This document shows positions 13,920 to 64,000 of a stretch of 64,000 bases of DNA, piece after piece. The stretch is from Desulfohalobiaceae bacterium S24 (GTDB taxonomy: Bacteria; Desulfobacterota; Desulfovibrionia; Desulfovibrionales; Desulfothermaceae). Position 1 is the stretch's first letter. Each line of letters opens with the position of its first letter. The notes beneath the pieces are model-generated. The model was given only the letters and a program-made list of their open reading frames with translations. It did not search any database and was not told where the DNA came from. A program made the position numbers and the translations under genes. The stretch is from positions 39,117 to 103,116 of the forward strand of contig JAABTT010000003.1 of the NCBI GenBank assembly GCA_011389765.1, written 5' to 3'.

Positions 13920-14240
13920 TTTCAGAGCTCTTTCCAGTGAGCTGAAATTTGAATGAATTTTTGGACACTTTATTGTGAATTATTTGCAAATCGAGGTTTC
14001 AGGTGTCAGATTTTAACGCATTGATATTGTAAATTTTTTCTTTACCTGACACCCGAGACCTCGTATGAAACTTCATTGTTCTTTCTCCGTCACCCCGGCG
14101 TAGGCCGGGGTCCAGCTCTTACATTTTTAATCTGGATTCCGGCCTACGCCGGAATGACGGAGGTGGTCGACCAATAGTTTCTTCATTGATCAAACTGGCT
14201 GGTCCGTCCAGCCAGCGGCCGCGCTGACACCTGTAACCTG
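13920..14240. repeat. Decayed relative of the large palindromic element, interrupted by a REP-type unit
   Basis: The segment at about 13922-14010 (CAGAGCTCTTTCC, then TGGACACTTTATTGTGAATT and CGAGGTTTCAGGTGTCAG) closely matches about 63520-63605. The segment near 14170-14200 (TTTCTTCATTGATCAAACTG followed by GC) matches the edges of the copies near 29995 and 52580. The 253-bp core present in the other copies is absent here. Between the two edges lies an unrelated palindromic unit (14085-14162). Confidence 0.6.
14085..14162. repeat. REP/MITE-like palindrome with CCGGCGTAGGCCGG arms
   Basis: Two 31-base arms, the left with CACCCCGGCGTAGGCCGGGG and the right its near-perfect complement ending in GGAATGACGGAG, are separated by 16 bases. 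This type of unit is widespread in proteobacterial intergenic DNA. It lies inside the decayed large element. Confidence 0.8.
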
Positions 14241-14365: not shown

Positions 14366-14440
14366 AATGTGTGAAAGCCTAACTTACCGCGAGGTAAGGA
14401 CGGAAAGCCACGGACCTCTTGAAAGACAGCCGGGTTGCCA
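14366..14440 (+). ncRNA. Cyclic-di-GMP-I (GEMM) riboswitch
   Basis: The aptamer core is visible: GTGAAAGCCTAACTTACC, a GCGA tetraloop, GGTAAGGACGGAAAGCCACG, then a short arm with TGAA loop and GACAGCCGGGTTGCC. Aligned by eye to the Vibrio Vc2 aptamer, the GACGCAAAGCC strand becomes GACGGAAAGCC, and the partner position changes from G to C, which keeps the pair. The ligand-contacting position corresponding to Vc2 G20 appears to be G, favouring c-di-GMP over the cGAMP subtype. The second arm is unusually short. The gene 150 bp downstream encodes a multi-PAS GGDEF-EAL protein, the expected kind of target. A weak GGTGC/GCACC stem near 14470 could be part of the expression platform. Confidence 0.75.
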
Positions 14441-14593
14441 CATTGCTCACCTATTTTAAAAAACCTTCCAGGTGCCTGCACCCTGCGTTTCATTTTCGGC
14501 ATACCGTTCTTACATCTCTCCGCGCTTTCACATTCTCAGATCATAGGGATTAATATAAGCTTTTGATATAAGCTTATACAATAAGGTACCATT

Positions 14594-17500
14594 ATGGAAA
14601 ATGAACATAAGACAAAAAAGCAGCTTTTGCAGGAGCTGACGGAACTGCGTTCGCAAAATGCCGCACTTGAAAAATCAATCTCCGGGCATATGTCGGATGA
14701 TCTTACCATGGATGGTACCTATGGCTATGCCGAAAGTATTCTGGAAACTCTTCGAGACCCCATTCTGGTCCTGGATAAAGACCTAAAGATAATATCGGCA
14801 AACCGCAGCTTTTATACTACCTTTAAAACCACTCCTGAGGAGACCATCGGAAGTTTTATCGATACAGAGATATATCTCGTGGACCGGGCAAAATTGGTGC
14901 AATGTAATATTCGTGATGTCACTGAGCGCAAGAGGCAGGAACAAGCCCTGCGAGAGAGCGAGAAGAAGTTCCGCACCATATTCAACAGTTCCAGCGATGC
15001 CATTTTCATTCACGATAGTTCAGGACGGTTTCTGGAAGTGAACGATGTGGCTTGTGAGCGCCTCGGTTATACCCGAGATGAGCTGCTGGAGATGACCTTG
15101 ATGGATATCGACACCCCGGAGGCGGCCAGAATTGTGCCAGATAATATACGACATCTGCATCAAGAGGGCTTTATATCTCTTGAGACTGTTCATCAACGAA
15201 AGGACGGACAACAATTCCCCGTTGAAATAACCAGTAGCCTGATAGATTATAAGGGCGAGACCTGGGTTTTGAGCACTGTCCGGGACATTACAGAACGCAG
15301 GCAGGCAGAAAAGGAGCTGCAGAGATATCAGCACCTCCTGAACAAGTCTCAGGAAATCGCGCATCTGGGGAGCTGGGAGGTTGACGTGGCCTCTGGGAGG
15401 CTTACCTGGTCCGACGAGACCTATCGCATCTTCGGGCTCGAGCCTCAGGAAGCGGAGATCACCTATGAAACGTTTCTCCAATTTATCCCTCCGGAGGATC
15501 GTGTTGCCGTGGACTCCGCATACATGGAATCCATCCGCATGAACAAGGACACCTTTGAGACCGAATTCCGCATAATCCGTGAGCGGGACGGTGGTATCCG
15601 TACAGTATTCGAGAAATTCTATCATATAAGGGATGATTCTGGGAACATTGTCCGGTCGGCAGGCATGATTCAGGATATCACTGAGCAAAAGCAAAAAGAG
15701 AGAGAAATCAAGGAGAGGGAAGAGGAATTACAAATCATATTCAACACAGTGGAGTCCGGTATCATCCTTGTTGATAAAGATGGCTGTATCATCCAAACCA
15801 ACAAAACAATGACGGAGATGCTCCGATACGATCATGAGGATATTATCGGATCGAAGTATATGGATTACGTGTATGAGTCGGAGACAGAGGCGGCCGATAC
15901 TAAAATGCGTCAGCTAATGAATCGGGAGTTGGACTCTGTGCATCTGGAACGTCGGTATCAGCGAAGCGATGGTGCGACATTTTGGGGCAGTCTGTCTGGA
16001 AGGCGGCTCTATTATCCGGATGGTACCTTTTGGGGGCTTGTTGGGGCTATTACCGATATCACTGAACTGAAGCAGGCTGAAGGAGCCTTACGCCAATCGG
16101 AGAGCTACTACCGAACCATATTCGAGACCTCTGGCTCGGCAATGCTCATTACTGAAGAGGACACCACCATATCCCTGGCCAGCTCGAACTTCGAAGAGCT
16201 GTCAGGATACTCCAAGCACGAGATCGAGGGGAAAAAATCCTGGACCGAGTTCGTGCATCCGGATGATGTGGAGTGGATGAAGAAAAATCACTATTTGCGA
16301 CGGCGTGACTCGCACGCAGCCCCCCGTAATTATGAGTTCCGCTTTCTGGATCATAATGGAGCGGTGCGTCACGGCTATCTGACAGTCGGCATGATCCCTG
16401 ACACTGCACAGAGTGTTTTTTCCCTTATAGACATTACCGAGCGCAAGCAGGCGGAGGAGCGCTTGCGGACCGCCCACGCCAAGGTGGACACTTTGGTGCA
16501 GTTAAGTGCCGATGGGCTCATAGTGCTGGACCAGGATGGGACAATCCTCTTCCTCAACCCTGCGGCCGCTGAGATGCTGGGGCGGGAGAAGGCCGAGCTT
16601 TTGGGAGAGCAGTTTGGACATCCCCTCATTCCAGGCTCAGACACTGAGATAGAACTTCTCTCCAACTCCGGGGAAACCAGAGTGGTGGAGCTTCGGGGCA
16701 GGGAGACGGAGTGGAACGGGCAGACCGCCCTTTTAATATCATTACGGGATATTACAGAACGTAAGCGAGCCGAAGAAAGAATCTATTACCTGGCCTATTA
16801 CGACGAGCTGACAGATCTGCCCAACAGGAGGCTGTTTCATGAGCGGCTGAAGGAGGTTACTGCTCGATGTGAATATTTCGGTGACGGTGGCGTTGTGTTT
16901 CGGGTGGATATGACCAGGCTCAGGGAGGTGAACGACACCTTGGGGCAACAGGCCGGAGACGGGCTTATAAGAGAAATAGCGCGGCGCTTAGGTGACACAG
17001 TAGGTGAGGAAGACACAGTGGCCCGTATCTCCGGAGGCGAGTTCATGGTCTTATCAGAAGGAAGGGTTACTGATGAGAGAGCCTACAATCTCGGGGTGCG
17101 CATTCTGGAGCGAATTGGTCGGGAGCTCGAAATGTCCGGCAGGCTGGTCTACCCGGAAGTCAATATCGGGTATACCCTGTTTCCGCAAAGGGGGACGGAT
17201 CCGGACACCCTGATCAAGCAGGGAGATATAGCCTTGAGCGAGGCCAAGAAAAGCGCCCACAGAATTCAGGAATTTACAGGGCAAGAGGATTGGATATCCC
17301 GACAGTTTCATTTGGAACACGATTTAAAAAAAGCCCTGACGAACAAGGAGTTCTTTCTCTGCTATCAGACGCAGATCGATCTCCGAACCGGCCGCATTGT
17401 GGGCCTGGAAGCTTTGCTCCGCTGGGCGCATCCCCAAAGGGGAATCGTCTCACCCGGGGAATTCATTCCAGTTCTGGAGCACACAGGAATGATCGCGGCA

Positions 17501-18058
17501 GCGGACGAGTGGGTCATTCATAGGGTGTGCAAACAGCTAGGATCCTGGCAGGAGAGGGGCATCTTTATGAAGACCGCGGTAAATCTTTCAGCTCGGGAGT
17601 TGAGCAACGACGCAATCATTGAGGTGGTCAGGACAGCCTTGAACGAGAATAAACTGCAAGCAGGCAATCTGGAGGTAGAGATCACTGAGACGGGCCTGAT
17701 GGAGAACGTAAAGCGGACTTCACGGATTCTGCAAACATTTTCCAGCTGGGGGGTACGGGTGGCCTTGGACGATTTCGGGACAGGCTATTCCAGTTTGAGT
17801 TACCTGCAAAAGCTGCCCATCAATACCATTAAGATCGACAAGGAGTTCGTGGATGGCCTGCCGGAGAAAGAGGATTCCGTGACTCTGGTGCAGACGATTA
17901 TCGCCATGGCCCACAATATGGGCAAGGAGGTTCTGGCTGAAGGTGTTGAGCGTGAAGAGCAGAGGCAAAAACTTATCGATCTTGGCTGCGACTATGGCCA
18001 GGGATTTTTGTGGAGCCGCCCACAGCCAGTTGAAAGCCTGTCACTCATGGGAGTTTGA
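14594..18058 (+). CDS. Multi-PAS GGDEF-EAL protein, probable c-di-GMP phosphodiesterase
   Basis: The 1154-residue cytosolic protein begins with a short coiled coil (residues 1-35), then about six PAS/PAC units (starting near 40, 115, 245, 375, 500 and 620, each ending in a DITERK-type linker), a GGDEF domain (about 742-900) and an EAL domain (about 905-1150). The GGDEF signature is reduced to SGGEF (near 812), lacking the canonical five-residue loop, so cyclase activity is unlikely. The EAL domain keeps LEALLRW (about 937), NLSAREL, EITETG, DDFGTGYSSLSYL, KIDKEF and LAEGVERE. No membrane segments are seen, so input probably comes through the PAS domains. The upstream riboswitch suggests c-di-GMP feedback on its own breakdown. 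Confidence 0.92.
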   Translation: MENEHKTKKQLLQELTELRSQNAALEKSISGHMSDDLTMDGTYGYAESILETLRDPILVLDKDLKIISANRSFYTTFKTTPEETIGSFIDTEIYLVDRAKLVQCNIRDVTERKRQEQALRESEKKFRTIFNSSSDAIFIHDSSGRFLEVNDVACERLGYTRDELLEMTLMDIDTPEAARIVPDNIRHLHQEGFISLETVHQRKDGQQFPVEITSSLIDYKGETWVLSTVRDITERRQAEKELQRYQHLLNKSQEIAHLGSWEVDVASGRLTWSDETYRIFGLEPQEAEITYETFLQFIPPEDRVAVDSAYMESIRMNKDTFETEFRIIRERDGGIRTVFEKFYHIRDDSGNIVRSAGMIQDITEQKQKEREIKEREEELQIIFNTVESGIILVDKDGCIIQTNKTMTEMLRYDHEDIIGSKYMDYVYESETEAADTKMRQLMNRELDSVHLERRYQRSDGATFWGSLSGRRLYYPDGTFWGLVGAITDITELKQAEGALRQSESYYRTIFETSGSAMLITEEDTTISLASSNFEELSGYSKHEIEGKKSWTEFVHPDDVEWMKKNHYLRRRDSHAAPRNYEFRFLDHNGAVRHGYLTVGMIPDTAQSVFSLIDITERKQAEERLRTAHAKVDTLVQLSADGLIVLDQDGTILFLNPAAAEMLGREKAELLGEQFGHPLIPGSDTEIELLSNSGETRVVELRGRETEWNGQTALLISLRDITERKRAEERIYYLAYYDELTDLPNRRLFHERLKEVTARCEYFGDGGVVFRVDMTRLREVNDTLGQQAGDGLIREIARRLGDTVGEEDTVARISGGEFMVLSEGRVTDERAYNLGVRILERIGRELEMSGRLVYPEVNIGYTLFPQRGTDPDTLIKQGDIALSEAKKSAHRIQEFTGQEDWISRQFHLEHDLKKALTNKEFFLCYQTQIDLRTGRIVGLEALLRWAHPQRGIVSPGEFIPVLEHTGMIAAADEWVIHRVCKQLGSWQERGIFMKTAVNLSARELSNDAIIEVVRTALNENKLQAGNLEVEITETGLMENVKRTSRILQTFSSWGVRVALDDFGTGYSSLSYLQKLPINTIKIDKEFVDGLPEKEDSVTLVQTIIAMAHNMGKEVLAEGVEREEQRQKLIDLGCDYGQGFLWSRPQPVESLSLMGV

Positions 18059-28255: not shown

Positions 28256-28349
28256 ATGTCTGGAATGTTCTTAAAATTGGACATTCTTTTGGTTTTATTC
28301 AGCAATATTAAATCTTCAATCTTCAATAGTAAATCCTATAGAACAGGCC

Positions 28350-29889: not shown

Positions 29890-30340
29890 CGTCAGCTTTG
29901 CCTCTGGCAAAACTGACACATATCTAATTGAAATGTTTTATAATACACTCATAAACTCTTTGGCTGTTGATCATGTAATCCACGACTGCCAGCTTGATCA
30001 ATGAAGAAACCGTGCAACCAAGAGGTCATAGGATAGAGAACCGGTCACAGAGTTCTCTTGAGCGACCTCGCTGGGAGGCTCTTTGGGTTTGTTAGGCTTG
30101 CTCGCCGGGGGAAACCGGACCGCGGTCTCAGCTTTAAGCCTGAAAAAACGAGATGTATTTTCATAAAGCAAGGCAGGTCCTCCAAGGAACAGATTAAAGA
30201 GTCCGGAGGGGGCAAGGATCCCCCGTGAGCAAGCCTTAGAAAACCAAGAGCCGAAAGCGTTAGAGCGAAAGAGAGCTCTGTGACCGGTTCGTGGTATCAG
30301 CTGAAGTTTCATACGAGTCATACCAGAGGCAAAGCCGACT
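29890..30340. repeat. Large palindromic repeat element, copy 1
   Basis: The core at 30038-30290 starts GAACCGGTCACAGAG and ends with the complement (CTCTGTGACCGGTTC). Long imperfect arms extend inward (CGCTGGGAGGCTCTTTGGG and GGCTTGCTCGCCGGGGGA on the left, TCCCCCGTGAGCAAGCC on the right). Flanks shared with copy 2 include CCACGACTGCCAG, TTGATCAATGAAGAAAC and, near 29905, a TTTGCCTCTGGCAAA palindrome. No convincing protein is encoded. It separates hldE from the NusG paralogue. Confidence 0.8.
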
Positions 30341-38254: not shown

Positions 38255-38369
38255 ATCCTGCTCCCTTTGCTGTTTGCAAAATGAATCTTTTTTTCTTTAA
38301 TCATATCAATGGGATGACTCCCCTGAAATATAGAGCAGGATATTGATATTTTTTGAACTTGCATAGGCA

Positions 38370-38465
38370 CTATAGGATTTACGATTGGATATTGAAGATT
38401 TAATATTGCTGAATATAAGAAAATCAAGAGGTTACCACGGCTCTAGCCAAAAACATTTTCTTAAA
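38370..38465 (+). repeat. AT-rich intergenic repeat, copy a
   Basis: GAAGATTTAATATTGCTGAA, TATAAGAAAATCAAGAGGTT, ACCACGGCTCTAGCCAAAAA and CATTTTCTTAA follow one another. The same chain recurs at about 45760-45838 and inverted at about 59341-59425. The remaining part of the purF-carB gap (38255-38609) holds no gene. Confidence 0.7.
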
Positions 38466-43444: not shown

Positions 43445-45763
43445 ATGCCCTGTGTTCAATTCATCGTCAACGGCCAGGTTCAGGGGGTCGGTTTTCGCCC
43501 CTTTGTCTACCGTCTGGCCCTGGAATGCGGTTTAGGCGGTCATGTGCGCAATACCGCGGAGGGGGTGGAAATTCTCCTTCACGGAGAACAACAGGTTCTC
43601 GACCAATTTGAAACAGACTTTTCCCGGAATCTTCCTCCTCTGGCCGAAATAACTGCAATCCGCAAGCAGACTCTCATTGACCGGGCAGTTCCGCAAACAT
43701 TTGCCATCAAAGACAGCACGGCCGGGGTCAATCATCAGGTGCTCATCAGTCCGGACACCGCCACCTGCCCTGACTGCCTGAAGGAAATCGACGCCCCGGG
43801 GGACCGCCGCCGCGGCTACGCCTTCACCAACTGCACCGACTGCGGTCCCAGATTCACCATCACCCGCTCCATTCCCTATGATCGGGTTCAGACCTCCATG
43901 GCCTGCTTCCCCATGTGCCCTCTCTGCCAAAAGGAATACGACAACCCTCTGAACCGGAGGTTTCACGCCCAGCCCAACGCCTGCCCGGTCTGCGGCCCCG
44001 AACTCTGGTACACAACCTCCTTTGGAAAACGGCTGGAGGCGAAGCAGGGCTGCCTGTTTCAAGCGGCCCTGGATTTGCATCAAGGCTGCATTGTCGCCAT
44101 CAAAGGGCTCGGGGGCTTCCACCTGGCCTGCCGGGCCGGCGATGAACAGAGCATAGCAAGCCTGCGTCAGCGCAAAAGACGAAAGGACAAGCCATTGGCC
44201 GTCATGGTCCCCGACCTTGACGCGGCAAAGACCATCGCCGATATTTCAGGCCCGGAAACAGCCTGCTTGTGCTCCAGACAACGCCCCATTGTTCTCAGCA
44301 AAAAGAAAGACAAGGCCATGCTCCCTGAGGCCTTGGCCCCGGACACCGATCGTATCGGAATCATGCTGCCCTACACCCCCTTGCACCATCTCCTGCTCAA
44401 AGCCTATTCCGGTTTGACGGAGAACACAATTACCCCGGCCCTGGTCATGACTTCCGGGAATATAAGCGCAAAACCTCTGGCCCTGGGCAATCGGGAAGCC
44501 CTGGACCTGCTCCGGGAAGTCGCCGACCGCTTTCTTCTGCACAACCGGGATATCCTGATCCGCTGTGACGACTCCGTTCTGGGGGTAAGCCCGAAATCCG
44601 CTAGAACCGTTTTTTTTCGACGGGCCAGAGGCTATGTCCCCGCACCCATCTTTTTCAAAGCCACAGGCTCCAGCGTCCTGGGCCTGGGAGCCGAAAAAAA
44701 ATCAAGCGTCTGCCTGACCCTGGGCAATCGGGCCTATGTCTCCCAGCACCTGGGAGATCTCACCAACAGTGCTGTCTTCGACTATTTCCGGCACACCATC
44801 CGGCATCTCCAAACCATCCTCAAAATCCAACCCCAGGCCTTGATCGCCGACCTGCACCCGGATTTTTTGAGCACCCAATACGCGGATACCCGGCCGGATC
44901 TGCCTGTCCTGCAAGTGCAGCACCATTTTGCCCATCTCTATGCCGTGCTCGGGGAAAACCAGGTGGAGGAACCCCTCCTTGGACTCATCCTGGACGGCTC
45001 AGGTCTGGGAACGGATCAAACCCTGTGGGGAGGCGAGCTGCTCTGTCTTGATCCGGTCCGGGGCGAGCAGATACGGCTTGGCCACTTTGTCCCTGTGCCC
45101 CTACCCGGCGGGGACGCCGCTGTTCTGGAACCCTGGAAAACGGCCCTGGGCTATCTGCATGCCCTGAAGCATTCCGGAGCCGGGCTCAGACCCTGGCCCT
45201 GGGCCGAAAACAAGGCCAAGGCCGCTGCAACTGTCCGCGCCATGCTGGACAAGGATCTGAACTGCCCGATCACCAGCAGCTGCGGAAGGCTCTTTGACGC
45301 GGTTTCAGCTTTGCTTGGCCTGAGCCTGCACATCAGCTATGAAGGGCAAGCCGCAATCCGGCTGGAAAAGATCCAGGACCGGTCTGCACGAGGGTCGTAC
45401 CCCTGTCCGCTGATCAGCAGAAAAACCGGGTGCCTTCTGGACACGCTGACTTTGTTCCGGTCTGTGCTCGAAGACTGGGAAAAAGGCGTATCACCCGTCC
45501 TCATCAGCCGCCGCTTCCATACCGGCTTGACACAGGGCCTCTGCCGATGGGCGCAGACGGCTGCCCAAAGGACCGGAATCAGAAAAATCGGGCTCAGCGG
45601 AGGCGTGCTTCAGAATCTGACCCTGGCCGACGAACTCCCCATGGCCTTAGAAAAAGTTGGACTCGAAGTTGTATTCCACAATTTTCTGCCGCCGAACGAC
45701 GGCTGCATTGCCTTCGGGCAGGCCGTCTTTGGGCACTACAGCCTGAGGAACTCTAAAAGTTAA
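43445..45763 (+). CDS. hypF: Carbamoyltransferase HypF ([NiFe]-hydrogenase maturation)
   Basis: The 772-residue protein has the full HypF layout: acylphosphatase domain (VNGQVQGVGFRPFVYRLALE), two zinc fingers (CPDCLKEI with CTDCGPRFT, and CPLCQKEY with CPVCGPELW), a YrdC-like domain (GCIVAIKGLGGFHLACRAGD, KRRKDKPLAVMVPD, TSGNISAKPL) and a Kae1-like C-terminal domain (VQHHFAHLYAVLGEN, LDGSGLGTDQTLWGGELL, LSGGVLQN). It makes the carbamoyl-AMP and thiocarbamoyl-HypE precursor of the cyanide ligands. No other hyp or hydrogenase gene is in this window. Confidence 0.97.
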   Translation: MPCVQFIVNGQVQGVGFRPFVYRLALECGLGGHVRNTAEGVEILLHGEQQVLDQFETDFSRNLPPLAEITAIRKQTLIDRAVPQTFAIKDSTAGVNHQVLISPDTATCPDCLKEIDAPGDRRRGYAFTNCTDCGPRFTITRSIPYDRVQTSMACFPMCPLCQKEYDNPLNRRFHAQPNACPVCGPELWYTTSFGKRLEAKQGCLFQAALDLHQGCIVAIKGLGGFHLACRAGDEQSIASLRQRKRRKDKPLAVMVPDLDAAKTIADISGPETACLCSRQRPIVLSKKKDKAMLPEALAPDTDRIGIMLPYTPLHHLLLKAYSGLTENTITPALVMTSGNISAKPLALGNREALDLLREVADRFLLHNRDILIRCDDSVLGVSPKSARTVFFRRARGYVPAPIFFKATGSSVLGLGAEKKSSVCLTLGNRAYVSQHLGDLTNSAVFDYFRHTIRHLQTILKIQPQALIADLHPDFLSTQYADTRPDLPVLQVQHHFAHLYAVLGENQVEEPLLGLILDGSGLGTDQTLWGGELLCLDPVRGEQIRLGHFVPVPLPGGDAAVLEPWKTALGYLHALKHSGAGLRPWPWAENKAKAAATVRAMLDKDLNCPITSSCGRLFDAVSALLGLSLHISYEGQAAIRLEKIQDRSARGSYPCPLISRKTGCLLDTLTLFRSVLEDWEKGVSPVLISRRFHTGLTQGLCRWAQTAAQRTGIRKIGLSGGVLQNLTLADELPMALEKVGLEVVFHNFLPPNDGCIAFGQAVFGHYSLRNSKS

Positions 45764-45838
45764 TATTGAAGATTTAATATTGCTGAATATAAGAAAATCA
45801 AGAAGTTACCAAGGCTCTATCCAAAAACATTTTCTTAA
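45760..45838 (+). repeat. AT-rich intergenic repeat, copy b
   Basis: Nearly identical to 38370-38465 (GAAGATTTAATATTGCTGAA, TATAAGAAAATCAAGAAGTT, CCAAAAACATTTTCTTAA). It fills the hypF-ruvX gap, and its last bases come within 14 bases of the ruvX start, so it may contribute the promoter or leader of ruvX. Confidence 0.75.
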
Positions 45839-52249: not shown

Positions 52250-52770
52250 TTCGAGTTGCAAGCTCATATGAAACTTCAGCTGATGTCACGAACCGATCAC
52301 AGAGCTCTCTTTCGCTTTAACGCTTCCGGCTCTTGGTTTTCTAAGGCTTGCTCACGGGGGATCTTTGCCCCCTCCGGACTCTTTGTTTTGTTCTTTGGCA
52401 AACTGCCTTTTCTTCGATGGAAACAGTTCTCTTTCTTCGAGTTGCAAGCTGGGGCCACGGTCCGGTTTCCCCCGGCGAGCAAGCCAAAGAAAAACCAAAG
52501 AGCCTCCCAGCGAGGTCGCTCAAGAGAACCCTGTGGCCGGTTCTCTATCTTATGACCTATTGTTTGCATGGTAAGACAGTTTCTTCATTGATCAAACTGG
52601 CAGTCGTGGATTTCAAAAAGAATAGCATGACAGCTTAGTCGTATATTGTAATAAATATCAAACAATTATGTGTCAGCTTTGCCAGAGGCAAAGCTGACAC
52701 CTGAAACCTCAAAACACCAAAAAGAATTGCAATACGTCCAAAAATGACTCCAAAGTGTCACGTAAAGAGC
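52250..52770. repeat. Large palindromic repeat element, copy 2 (inside the Mrp operon)
   Basis: The core at 52290-52543 is in the opposite orientation to copy 1, with arms starting GAACCGATCACAGAG and ending GGCCGGTTC. Matching outer parts include TATGAAACTTCAGCTGA on one side and TTTCTTCATTGATCAAACTG on the other. Further out are a TTTGCCAGAGGCAAA palindrome near 52688 and an AGAGCTCTGTATTCAG end near 52775 that matches the outer edge of copy 3. No convincing protein is encoded in 52186-52811. It lies between two antiporter genes on the same strand. Confidence 0.8.
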
Positions 52771-52811
52771 TCTGTATTCAGGGCGCACCGGAAAGAGATA
52801 TGCTTGTCCGC

Positions 52812-54315: not shown

Positions 54316-54723
54316 TTATTTCCGCGTCAAGCGCATCCGGATTTCGTCTTCTTCCAGGGTTTGATAACGCTGATAGATTTTCACAGCCAGAGCCAGGGCC
54401 ACGCCGAATGTGGCCACTGAAACAACAATCGCGGTCAGCATGAGCACATGGGGCAGAGGATTGATATAATCCGCGGCCCGGATCAGGAGTTGCTTCCCTC
54501 CATGCCCGTTTCCATGGGCATTTTCAATGATCGGAATAGTCGCCCCCTTCTTATATCCGATGGAAACAAAAAAAAGAATGATCGAAGTCTGGAAGATATT
54601 CATGCCCACCAGCTTCTTGACGAGATTATTCTTCACGATCATGGCGTAGAGGCCGATCATCATCAGGATAATATACAGCCAGTAGTTGTACTTGGCCACG
54701 ATGTGCGTCAGGAGGTCAACCAT
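54316..54723 (-). CDS. mnhC: Mrp antiporter subunit C
   Basis: The 135-residue NuoK/MrpC-type protein has three membrane helices (YWLYIILMMIGLYAMIVKNN, LVGMNIFQTSIILFFVSIGY, LTAIVVSVATFGVALALAVK) and the family motif NLVKKLVGMNIFQ. It has a short hydrophilic loop with GNGHGGK between the second and third helices. It lies just before mnhD. Confidence 0.95.
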   Translation of the reverse strand: MVDLLTHIVAKYNYWLYIILMMIGLYAMIVKNNLVKKLVGMNIFQTSIILFFVSIGYKKGATIPIIENAHGNGHGGKQLLIRAADYINPLPHVLMLTAIVVSVATFGVALALAVKIYQRYQTLEEDEIRMRLTRK

Positions 54724-54899
54724 AGTGGATGTAGAATTGAAGATTTACGATTGAAGATAGAACATTGCTTAATATAAGAAAATCAAATAATTACAGCGAT
54801 CATACTTCGAATTTCCAATTTCCAGAACACCGACACATTCTTGTATTTTGAATTATTTTGAATAGATATAAGTCAGTTTTGCCGCAGGCAAAGCTGACT
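54724..54899. repeat. Intergenic repeat DNA inside the Mrp operon
   Basis: About 54740-54785 (GAAGATTTACGATTGAAGAT, TGCTTAATATAAGAAAATCA) is a diverged copy of the AT-rich family. Near 54868-54898 is a GTCAGTTTTGCC / GGCAAAGCTGAC palindrome like those bordering the large elements. No gene is seen. The gap breaks the otherwise tight spacing of mnhB and mnhC. Confidence 0.6.
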
Positions 54900-56615: not shown

Positions 56616-56742
56616 AGAGGATTTTGGATTTTCGATTGAGGATTTACGATTTTAAAGACAAAGCCTTGGGCCTTCAAGAGGATGATTTGTTGTAACGCCT
56701 TTGATTTTCTTTTCTTCAGCAATGTTCAATCTTCAATATTCA

Positions 56743-57294
56743 CTATTCAATCCTCTCCACCTCGTCTCCAAAGACCGCGGCCACTTTCCCCAGCATCTCG
56801 CCGGGCAGAGCCCGGGACGATTTCCGATCTATGGCGTGGACGGTGAAAAGTCCCTCCCTGTTTGCCGTCACAGTGATGGTCCCCGGGGTCAGCGTGATGG
56901 AATTGGCCATGGTCACGATGGACATATCCTTACTCAGGCCGGTCCTGATCGAAACGATATGGGGGTCGATCAAATCGTGCATCCTGGGATGAAAAACCAG
57001 ACGCAGCAGATGAAAATTGGCCTTGAAAATTTCCACAATCAACCAGGGTATATAGGCAAAAAACCGAATGGAGCTGGCAAAATAGCTCCGGTGAAAGCCG
57101 GGGAACAAGAGATCGTGAAAGAAATAAGCCACCAGAAAGCTGGCCAGGAACCCCAAACCCAGAAGCAGGGGCTCAAATTTTCCGGAAAGCACCAGCCACA
57201 GAGCAAACAAAAAACAGAAGGTGCAAACAAAAGAAAAGGCCGACTGCAAGCGGCGCACCAGCGGACTGTCAGCAGGGAACACAGGTTTTTTCAC
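56743..57294 (-). CDS. mnhE: Mrp antiporter subunit E
   Basis: The 183-residue protein has two N-terminal membrane helices (SAFSFVCTFCFLFALWLVLS, FEPLLLGLGFLASFLVAYFF) and the MnhE core IPWLIVEIFKANFHLLRLVF, with NSITLTPGTITVTANREGLF. A GTG start (57294) gives the normal length. It is the first subunit gene of the operon; a 127-bp gap with short AT-rich repeat DNA separates it from mnhF. Confidence 0.93.
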   Translation of the reverse strand: MKKPVFPADSPLVRRLQSAFSFVCTFCFLFALWLVLSGKFEPLLLGLGFLASFLVAYFFHDLLFPGFHRSYFASSIRFFAYIPWLIVEIFKANFHLLRLVFHPRMHDLIDPHIVSIRTGLSKDMSIVTMANSITLTPGTITVTANREGLFTVHAIDRKSSRALPGEMLGKVAAVFGDEVERIE

Positions 57295-59299: not shown

Positions 59300-59340
59300 C
59301 GCTGTCACTCCATTTAAATTGTAAATCCTTATCCGTTATA

Positions 59341-59425
59341 CCCTTTAAGAAAATGTTTTTGGATAGAGCCATTGTAACTTCTTGATTTTCTTATATTCAG
59401 CAATATTAAATCTTCAATATTCAAT
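59341..59425 (-). repeat. AT-rich intergenic repeat, copy c (inverted)
   Basis: Reverse complement of the repeats at 38370 and 45760: AAGAAAATGTTTTTGGATAG, AGCCATTGTAACTTCTTGAT, TTTCTTATATTCAGCAATAT. It lies between the receiver and the receiver-kinase gene. The repeat is thus between genes on the same strand in this case. Confidence 0.75.
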
Positions 59426-60932
59426 TGTAAATCCTATACGGGAGGCGGATACTGAATGTCGAGCCCCGGCCAGGTGCTGAATCCACCCTAATGGTCCCCT
59501 GATGCTCCTCAATGAGCTTTCGGGTCACCAAGAGCCCGAGACCGGTGCCCTTGGCGCCTTTTGTACTGAAAAAAGAGGTGAACAAGGTGTCCTGAATCTC
59601 CCGGTCCATACCGCAGCCATTATCAATGACGTCCACCCGAAGTTGATGATCCGCTTCAGCCCGAGTCCGCAGTGTGACCTGCGGATGCGCAGCAGTCCCG
59701 TCCTGGGAAAGACAGGCGTCCAAAGCATTGGACAAGAGATTGGTCAGAGCCCGGTGCAGGGTTTGCGGGTCAAGAAAAAGCTCTTGAATGGAAGGATCCA
59801 GATCCTTGTGGATCTCTATTTCATTTTCCCTGGCGATTTCGGAAAAGAGATCACAGACATCCGCCACGATTGTATTGGGAGAACACTTTGTGTATTCCGG
59901 TTCGCGCTCCTTGGAATAGCTCAGGAGGTCCAGGACAAGGTCTGAGGTACGGTCAATGTTCCGTTTGACCATGTGCCAGCCCTCTTGCAGTTTATCCATG
60001 TCATTTTTTTGCAGTCCGGATTCCAGCAGATATCGTCCGCCCTTAAACCCATGCAGGATGTTTTTGATCCCATGGGCCAGGCCGGCGACGGTTTGGCCGA
60101 TGGCTGCCAAGCGCTCGGACCGGAGGAGATCCTGCTCCAGTTTCTTGATTTCCCGCAGGTCCTGAAAAAACGCGACGCTTCCGACAACCCTGTCCTGTTC
60201 ATAGAGAATAGAGCCGGAAAAACGGACCGGCACTTCTTCTCCCTGCTTGCTGCTGATGTTCGCTTCTCGCCAGGGCAGATCCTTCACTGCATCTTGTTCC
60301 AGGCCTTCTTGAATGGACGCGGCGAGCTCCCGGGGCAGTACATCAGAAAGGATTCGGCGGGAGACGACCTCCTCCCGGGTGTATCCGAAGATACGCTCGG
60401 CTTCGGGGTTGAAAATCACCACCTTTAGTCCTTCATCCGTCGCCACGATACCGTCGTTGGAACTCCTGATCAACTTGCTTTGAAACGAAGATTTCCTCTG
60501 GATCTCCCGGGTTGCCTCCTCAATCTTGTCTTCAAGCTTCGTTGTGTACTCTTCGAGCTGCTTTCGGATCTCGATCTTGCCTTCAGCCCGCTTCAAAGCA
60601 ATGCTCAAGGCCTCGTCCACCACCGGCTTATTGATAAAATCGGAGGCGTCGTGCTGCAGGGCCTCAATGGAGGAATCCAGATCTCCGTGGCCGGTGATGA
60701 TGATCACTTCAGTCTCCGGACGAATGGACTTGATTTTTTTTAAAAGCTCCAGGCCGTCCATGACCGGCATTTTGATATCCGTCAAGACGATATCCGGGGC
60801 CTCCTGATGAAAAATATCAAGGCCTTCCTGTCCATTGGCTGCCGTCACGACGTCGTAGCCGTCGTATTTTAAGGACCGGGCCAGCACTCGAACAATGGCT
60901 TCTTCGTCTTCAACCAGCAGAATTTTATACAT
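59421..60932 (-). CDS. Receiver-PAS-histidine kinase hybrid
   Basis: The 503-residue protein has an N-terminal receiver (KILLVEDEEAIVRVLARSLK, Asp52 in VLTDIKMPVMDG), a coiled coil (about 125-155), a PAS domain (RSSNDGIVATDEGLKVVIFN, ERIFGYTREEVVSRRILSDV) and a kinase core. The core has the histidine in RLAAIGQTVAGLAHGIKNIL, an N box in LTNLLSNALDACL, a G1 box VIDNGCGMD and a G2 box GAKGTGLGLLVTRKLIEEH. The H box lacks the usual HE pair (HG). The layout suits a relay between the upstream kinase and the small receivers downstream. Confidence 0.9.
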   Translation of the reverse strand: MYKILLVEDEEAIVRVLARSLKYDGYDVVTAANGQEGLDIFHQEAPDIVLTDIKMPVMDGLELLKKIKSIRPETEVIIITGHGDLDSSIEALQHDASDFINKPVVDEALSIALKRAEGKIEIRKQLEEYTTKLEDKIEEATREIQRKSSFQSKLIRSSNDGIVATDEGLKVVIFNPEAERIFGYTREEVVSRRILSDVLPRELAASIQEGLEQDAVKDLPWREANISSKQGEEVPVRFSGSILYEQDRVVGSVAFFQDLREIKKLEQDLLRSERLAAIGQTVAGLAHGIKNILHGFKGGRYLLESGLQKNDMDKLQEGWHMVKRNIDRTSDLVLDLLSYSKEREPEYTKCSPNTIVADVCDLFSEIARENEIEIHKDLDPSIQELFLDPQTLHRALTNLLSNALDACLSQDGTAAHPQVTLRTRAEADHQLRVDVIDNGCGMDREIQDTLFTSFFSTKGAKGTGLGLLVTRKLIEEHQGTIRVDSAPGRGSTFSIRLPYRIYN

Positions 60933-63519: not shown

Positions 63520-64000
63520 CAGAGCTCTTTACAGTACGTTAAAATTTGAAACCATTTTTGGACATTTTGTTGTGAATTATCTGCAAATCAAGGTTTCAGG
63601 TGTCGGGTGTCAGCTTTGCCTCTGGCAAATCTGACACATAATTATTTGAATTTACATAGAATATACGACAGAGCTCTATCGCAGATGTTTAATCACATGA
63701 TTGCCAGTTTGATCAGAGAAAGAAACTTACCATGCCAACAATAGGTCATAAGATAGAGAACCGGTCACAGAGTTCTCTGGAGCGACCTCGCTGGGAGACT
63801 CTTAGGTTTTCTTGGGGTTGCTCGCCGGGGGAAACCGGACCGTTGCCTCAGCATGCAACCTGAAGAAAGAAATACATTTCCATTGCAGAAAGGCAGTCGG
63901 ACAAAGAACAAAACAAAGAGTCCGGAGGGGGCAAAGATCCCCCGTGAGCAACCCTTAGAAAACCAAGAGCCGGAAGCGTTAAAGCGAAAGAGAGCTCTGT
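63520..64000. repeat. Large palindromic repeat element, copy 3 (cut by the window edge)
   Basis: From about 63520 (AGAGCTCTTTACAG) through GGACATTTTGTTGTGAATTA, CAAGGTTTCAGGTGTC and a TTTGCCTCTGGCAAA palindrome near 63613, the sequence reaches the core starting at 63758 (GAACCGGTCACAGAG). It runs in the same orientation as copy 1 to the last base (GAGAGCTCTGT). The 63464-63757 part shows the outer flank best; it matches the 13920 region and, inverted, 52690-52775. No gene is seen. Confidence 0.8.

What the first reader, a model, noticed from the sequence alone, without database searches (positions are those of the whole stretch)
29890..30340. A family of about 0.5-kb palindrome-rich elements, apparently undescribed
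Three copies (29890-30340, 52250-52770, 63520 to the edge) share a 253-254 bp core bounded by GAACCGRTCACAGAG and its complement. Inside are nested imperfect arms, and outside are shared flanks with a TTTGCCWSWGGCAAA palindrome and a GAGCTCT edge. A decayed relative lies at 13920-14240. Core arms differ by many substitutions yet stay complementary in places, suggesting RNA or DNA folding matters. No transposase is encoded, so it could be a non-autonomous mobile element or a structured RNA.
Basis: partly seen in the sequence, partly recalled or inferred. Interest (0 to 1): 0.7.

Follow-up and report, generated by a model that had tools for sequence, protein, structure and literature searches.

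The report
Folded core shared by jumping hairpins
Small repeated DNA elements scattered through sulfate-reducing bacteria and their relatives share one conserved core that is predicted to fold into a long hairpin, although the ends of the elements differ between genomes, so the core likely serves the elements' own spread in a way that our literature searches did not find described.

Summary
The window holds three 252-254 bp cores (30038-30290 +, 52290-52543 -, 63758-64000 + cut by the contig end). The "decayed relative" at 13920-14240 is the outer repeat holding another palindrome, not a core. The core is multicopy (18 matches in the window's genome, 89 in one of the same family, 34 in Desulfohalobium retbaense) and occurs in 22 of 395 sampled genomes of the phylum. 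Its arms diverge but covary, while a purine-rich bulge is nearly fixed. No Rfam, phage or plasmid match. In D. retbaense the 306-bp element has GGCTCTTCG..AAGAACC ends and 8-9 bp AT-rich target duplications (28 of 30 copies examined; 5 of 5 core-less minis); a second genome repeats this (13 of 17 readable). So it is a non-autonomous mobile element. Elsewhere other ends carry the same core. In D. retbaense 32 of 34 copies face one way relative to the replication fork, while the minis face the other way. GU and AC states are nearly balanced, which speaks against a strand-specific RNA role. The partner transposase (likely ISL3-type) and the core's function are unproven.

The parts
30038..30290 (+). 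core, copy 1 (253 bp), bounded by GAACCGGTCACAGAG and its complement
   Evidence: R1 match 30067-30260 E 1.8e-46, R3 match E 1.8e-24
30107..30122 (+). left conserved motif GGGGGAAACCGGACCG of copy 1
   Evidence: conserved in alignments A1 and, in its G-run and AAA, A2
30199..30224 (+). right conserved motif GAGTCCGGAGGGGGCAAGGATCCCCC of copy 1, with the bulge AGGGGGCAAGGAT
29891..30037 (+). left half of the outer repeat around copy 1 (TTTGCC palindrome to TTGATCAATGAAGAAAC)
   Evidence: (D8, I3)
30291..30337 (+). right half of the outer repeat around copy 1 (GAAGTTTCATACGAG at 30303-30317)
52290..52543 (-). core, copy 2 (254 bp); motifs at 52458-52473 and 52356-52381
   Evidence: R1 match 52320-52514 E 6.1e-48, R3 4.7e-26
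52263..52289 (-). outer repeat, short half, around copy 2 (CTCATATGAAACTTC)
52544..52772 (-). outer repeat, long half, around copy 2, ending in GAGCTC at 52759-52772
63758..64000 (+). core, copy 3, cut by the window and contig end; motifs at 63827-63842 and 63918-63943
   Evidence: R1 match 63787-63979 E 1.8e-47, R3 5.8e-26
63522..63757 (+). outer repeat, long half, around copy 3, from GAGCTCTTTACAGT
   Evidence: (D5)
13925..14237 (-). outer repeat without core; its loop holds a REP-like palindrome at 14085-14162 instead
   Evidence: (D5, I24); no R1 or R3 match at E<=1

Best explanation
The 253-bp core belongs to a dispersed family, present in 22 of 395 sampled genomes of the phylum, of small elements that are predicted to fold into long hairpins around one conserved centre while their ends differ between genomes, and that are likely moved in trans by transposases of other elements (ISL3-type in the two genomes where the ends and target duplications could be read). 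Shown: multicopy dispersal; 8-9 bp AT-rich target duplications in D. retbaense and in genome G006; movement of the bare 70-bp ends without the core; the same core inside elements with different ends, twice within one genome (D. retbaense, G350); covariation of the arms; one orientation relative to the replication fork in D. retbaense, with a weaker bias of the same sense in G006. Inferred: that an ISL3-type transposase does the moving; that insertion is coupled to the replication fork; that the core acts as DNA (a hairpin on a transiently single strand, or a cruciform) and influences orientation or success of insertion. Not explained: why the G5AAA/AGGGGGCAAGNAT motif itself is so constant.
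For: Target duplications: 28 of 30 full copies examined (of 33) and 3 of 3 minis, 5 of 5 minis counting two more, random control 12 of 6000; G006 13 of 17 readable (3 of 20 unreadable), control 14 of 6000. Duplications are 77% AT against 44% in the flanks. Resident ISL3 copies of D. retbaense begin GGTTCCTC and show exact 8-bp duplications at 7 of 10 copies (my reading). PF01610 genes are present in both genomes with readable duplications (G015 10, G006 3 partial). Different ends: GGCTCTTCG..AAGAACC in G015 and G006; GGTTCTCCGACG.. in G068 (L077); a 125-bp GCAGCCCGTTGAAAA palindrome in G015; TATTAACGGTCTCA..TGAGACGATTAATA in G377; GGACTTTCCCC and TGGAGTTTTCTGAG types in G350. Covariation: 16 of 37 pairs with double changes, 82 cells against 24.7 shuffled, 0 of 500; 26 of 38 pairs, 139 cells against 56.6, 0 of 500. 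Fork orientation: 32 of 34 (p 7e-8); G006 16 of 20 windows (p 0.012); minis 0 of 5 (Fisher 3.6e-5). DNA rather than RNA: GU 15 against AC 15 states within D. retbaense.
Against: No autonomous element with the same ends was found in D. retbaense; the end-pattern search gave two more minis among the loci I read, and most of its 256 places were not read. The element's ends match the resident ISL3 only in GGYTCYT. PF01610 is absent from 6 of 9 genomes searched, including the window's. Minis move without the core, so the core is not needed for transposition. Fork orientation is not seen with other end types: G000 9 of 15, G350 11 of 20, G632 2 of 8, three others 2 of 3 windows, local GC skew being a noisy guide. 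Resident ISL3 copies show no orientation bias (5 of 10). In G000 no ends or target duplications were settled. Copies within D. retbaense vary as much in paired as in unpaired sites (45 of 212 and 22 of 94), so no selection on single copies is visible. A3 counts 66 GU against 32 AC cells, but that alignment was fitted to the model.
Confidence: 0.5

Rival explanations
1. An ordinary MITE family. The long inverted repeat and its covariation are left over from a palindromic ancestor and from arm-to-arm conversion, with no function of the core.
For: Minis without the core move. Recent copies vary equally in paired and unpaired sites. GU and AC states are near balanced. MITE transcripts generally fold into stem-loops (review PMC10969869, passages).
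Against: Between families the arms change by paired substitutions while the bulge and G-runs stay nearly fixed. R3, built only from sequences outside the order, still finds the window's cores at E about 1e-24 to 1e-26. The same centre sits between unrelated ends. A core-less, core-bearing contrast exists in orientation.
Confidence: 0.25
2. A structured RNA gene or mRNA element, spread by hitch-hiking on MITEs and used by the host after transcription.
For: Conserved unpaired motif and covarying helices; strong fold. GU exceeds AC in A1 (30 to 17 cells) and A3 (66 to 32). Copies in D. retbaense are mostly downstream of genes: convergent 12, codirectional 11, divergent 2 of 25.
Against: GU/AC balanced by column types in A1 (15 and 14), in A2 (120 and 105 cells) and within D. 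retbaense (15 and 15). No selection on single copies. No constant orientation to neighbouring genes (+,+ 7 and -,- 4). No Rfam family at gathering score. No expression data were available.
Confidence: 0.15
3. A bidirectional transcription barrier or processing site that makes insertion near gene ends tolerable.
For: 12 of 25 copies lie between convergent genes and 2 between divergent ones; terminator-like hairpins lie at 9 of 31 empty sites against 78 of 1240 random positions.
Against: The T-run needed for an intrinsic terminator does not follow the outer stem in the copies read (my reading). The site preference can equally be target choice for AT-rich tracts.
Confidence: 0.1

Closest known systems
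[quoted passage not shown] Chunjie of Geobacter uraniireducens
   Same: Small, multicopy, no transposase gene, inverted-repeat ends, target duplications, mostly intergenic. The review passages seen (PMC10969869) give Chunjie as 235 bp with 37 further full copies.
   Different: Here one conserved folded centre is shared by elements with different ends over many families of a phylum.
ISL3-family insertion sequences
   Same: GG(T/C)TC(C/T)T start and 8-bp AT-rich target duplications, as in the resident ISL3 copies of D. retbaense. That these are family traits is recalled.
   Different: No transposase; inner ends differ from the resident ISL3; other genomes carry the core with other ends and without ISL3 genes.
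ERIC, REP/BIME and Correia-type palindromic repeats
   Same: Intergenic imperfect palindromes in many copies (review passages).
   Different: No sequence comparison was made. The core's conserved bulge and the nesting in other palindromes are the distinguishing features; ERIC's single conserved sequence over its range is recalled.
Fork-oriented elements (Tn7 by TnsE, IS200/IS605)
   Same: Copies face one way relative to replication (review PMC5371812, passages).
   Different: Here a short element without genes; IS200/IS605 make no target duplication (recalled), this one does.

Membership tests
MITE | short (below about 0.5 kb), no room for a transposase gene | tested here: met
   306 bp in D. 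retbaense, about 260-284 bp in G006; longest ORF wholly within the region of copy 1 is 107 aa (not compared with family libraries)
MITE | inverted-repeat ends | tested here: met
   GGCTCTTCGTCACAG and GGTTCTTTGACGGAT in D. retbaense; GGCTCTTCGACACAG and GGTTCTTCGACGTAG in G006
MITE | target-site duplications | tested here: met
   28 of 30 full copies and 5 of 5 minis in D. retbaense; 13 of 17 in G006. In the window's genome the ends were not settled, so not tested there
MITE | ends match an autonomous transposon that can move it | tested here: inconclusive
   only GGYTCYT shared with resident ISL3 in D. retbaense; no autonomous copy found
ISL3-derived element | ISL3 transposase (PF01610) in the genome | tested here: inconclusive
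   present in 3 of 9 genomes (G015, G006, G040), absent in 6, including the window's genome G000
ISL3-derived element | ends homologous to an ISL3 terminal repeat | tested here: inconclusive
   first seven bases agree, the rest does not
IS200/IS605-derived element | no target-site duplication (recalled) | tested here: not met
   duplications at most copies
Known RNA family (Rfam 15) | score above the family's gathering threshold | tested here: not met
   window: only a c-di-GMP-I riboswitch elsewhere; six relatives: 0; E-value mode on copy 1: four sub-threshold hits, none in the core
Chunjie MITE | sequence identity | not testable with these tools
   sequence paper not held

The most novel reading that the evidence does not exclude
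The core is a mobile structured DNA module in its own right: it invades the hairpin tips of other palindromic repeats, rides on whatever transposase moves those, and its strand-specific fold at the replication fork sets the direction in which the element lands.
Probability: 0.2. Interest if true: 0.85.

Novelty: new variant of a known kind. Interest (0 to 1): 0.6.

Why it matters
MITEs are usually seen as remnants of one insertion sequence. A centre that is conserved across a phylum while the ends change would mean that selection keeps something other than transposase binding. The fork-oriented copies in D. retbaense, a cultured type strain, with core-less minis facing the other way, make the role of the core testable.

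Tried and rejected
A strand-specific RNA was tested by GU/AC balance and set back. The 13920-14240 stretch as a decayed core was rejected. Phage, plasmid and viral origin: no match for the window core in phages and plasmids and none for the exact motif pair in viral contigs; the covariance models were not run on those collections. Genome-collection pattern scan: 60 stretches, perhaps a cap, since D. retbaense is not among them. Model R2 came out with 3 base pairs and was not used. A first terminator test used a faulty end search and an unsuited control (3 of 8 sites, 45 of 120 control) and was replaced. A first ends regex read 25 of 30 copies; one search read all 30 full loci. G673 GC skew was too irregular to use. 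ERIC, REP and integron attC sites were not compared by sequence.

Papers: PMC10969869, PMC3035252, PMC5371812 and PMC4549789 were seen as passages; others only as search listings. Gomez et al. 2014 is known only from the review passage and reference lists (text not held).

Full report
What is in the window. Three cores lie at 30038-30290 (+), 52290-52543 (-) and 63758-64000 (+, cut by the end of contig G000:C61). Each carries GGGGGAAACCGGACCG and, start to start about 92-94 bases on, GAGTCCGGAGGGGGCARRGATCCCCC. At 13925-14237 this outer repeat holds another palindrome instead of a core; neither covariance model matches there at E<=1.

Copies. Copy 1 has 61 BLAST matches in its own genome at E<=0.001 (40 of 168 candidates scored). 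Covariance model R1 gives at E<=1e-8: G000 18, G001 58, G002 18, G006 89, G011 4, G015 34, G030 0, G040 1, G062 2, G068 4 (150 candidates scored per genome, so counts may be low). G015 has a chromosome of 2,864,304 bp, the length printed for D. retbaense (passages of PMC3035252).

Structure. In alignment A1 (28 diverse cores, MAFFT) 16 of 37 pairs show changes on both sides; 82 cells against 24.7 in shuffles, 0 of 500 as high; sliding the partner by one to three columns collapses the signal. R1, built from A1, searched over 395 genomes of the phylum matched 15 at E<=1e-3, 14 of them outside the order. R3, built from 27 of those distant matches (12 genomes), matched 22 of 395 at E<=1e-4, 10 of them not used in building it, in 13 families, and finds the three window cores at 1.8e-24 to 4.7e-26. 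R3's alignment was fitted by R1. In a MAFFT alignment across the phylum (A2, 34 sequences) 26 of 38 pairs have double changes, 139 cells against 56.6 (0 of 500); paired cells are 73.6%, and a slide by -1 keeps 58.4%, so this alignment is rough. The shared fold is a lineage-specific outer stem, inner helices, a G5:C5 helix whose 3' side carries a bulge AGGGGGCAAGNAT opposite AAA, and a hairpin of variable length. The alternative pairing of the bulged G-run with the same C-run cannot be told apart by covariation.

Mobility. In D. retbaense 33 full or near-full copies of 306 bp are 95-100% identical. Ends GGCTCTTCG... and ...AAAGAACC are flanked by 8- or 9-bp duplications with at most one mismatch in 28 of 30 full loci examined (the two misses are L247, whose start is uncertain by a base or more, and L253, which lacks the right end). 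Random positions give 12 of 6000. Five 70-bp minis without the core have exact 8-bp duplications; two more fragments keep one end. The mini junction has a 5-base AGACG overlap, so minis are likely deletion products (my reading). In G006, of the window's family, the ends are GGCTCTTCGACACAG and GGTTCTTCGACGTAG and 13 of 17 readable copies have duplications (3 of 20 unreadable; control 14 of 6000).

Different carriers. In D. retbaense a second core type sits once in the tip of a 125-bp palindrome (GCAGCCCGTTGAAAA...), flanked by GTATGCCAA on both sides (L034, my reading), while 12 copies of that palindrome printed have no core. In the window's genome 10 outer repeats were read (of 12 loci asked for): seven hold a CCGTCATTCCGGCG palindrome, one a CGTCATTGCGAGG one, one a GATCGGAATCGC one, and one a shortened core (my reading). 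G350 has two end types, G377 ends that look like TA-flanked repeats (my reading).

Strand and replication. GC skew of D. retbaense changes sign near 0 and 1.43 Mb. 32 of 34 copies (33 plus one interrupted by another element) lie with the core strand against the fork (p 7e-8), resident ISL3 5 of 10. Minis: 0 of 5 follow this rule (Fisher 3.6e-5; copies may not be independent). Neighbouring genes do not explain it: codirectional genes run with the core in 7 cases and against it in 4. G006: 16 of 20 windows agree by local GC skew (p 0.012; 20 of 89 copies, chosen among the best listed). G000 9 of 15, G350 11 of 20, G632 2 of 8, three others 2 of 3: no bias. GU against AC: A1 30 and 17 cells but 15 and 14 column types, A3 66 and 32, A2 120 and 105, within D. 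retbaense 15 and 15; polymorphic sites 45 of 212 paired and 22 of 94 unpaired. This favours a role at the DNA level, kept through the lineage of active copies and not at each site.

Reading. The element is non-autonomous and mobile. ISL3 genes occur in both genomes where the duplications were read and not in the window's, and ISL3 copies in D. retbaense have 8-bp duplications at 7 of 10 (my reading), so an ISL3-type transposase is the likely mover there; elsewhere other transposases must be assumed. The core is not needed for movement, since minis move, but it goes with insertion direction and is conserved between unrelated ends. What the constant bulge binds is unknown.

Noticed in passing
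window 14367-14442: c-di-GMP-I riboswitch (Rfam RF01051, 54.9 bits) upstream of a 1154-aa ORF at 14594-18058 on the same strand.
   Followed up: no
G015 whole chromosome (D. retbaense): Element copies are oriented with the replichore (32 of 34), core-less minis the other way (0 of 5); resident ISL3 shows no bias.
   Followed up: partly
L259 330-2816: One D. retbaense copy of the element is interrupted by a 2.5-kb insert with ORFs of 499 and 271 aa that look like an IS21 istA/istB pair (recalled, not searched).
   Followed up: no
L034 and loci: A 125-bp palindromic repeat family (GCAGCCCGTTGAAAA..) in D. retbaense with variable tips, partly in tandem arrays near 495 kb.
   Followed up: partly
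window 13925-14237 and L279-L286: The outer GAAACTT hairpin holds several unrelated palindromes in the same loop position, as if palindromes insert into hairpin tips.
   Followed up: partly
window 28288-28340, 38362-38464, 45736-45838, 54721-54795, 56700-56757, 59332-59438: Another repeat family (TTGAAGATTTAATATTGCTGAATATAAGAAAATCAA) in intergenic places of the window (D1, D4, D7).
   Followed up: no
G000 contig ends (C120, C14, C56, C95, C58, C33, C61): Several contigs begin or end inside the core, so the assembly breaks at it and copies are undercounted.
   Followed up: no
L032, L038, L098: In some G001/G002 cores the stretch after the bulge reads GATCCCGTGTTCAC in place of GATCCCCCATGAGC, the same block replacement in several copies.
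   Followed up: no
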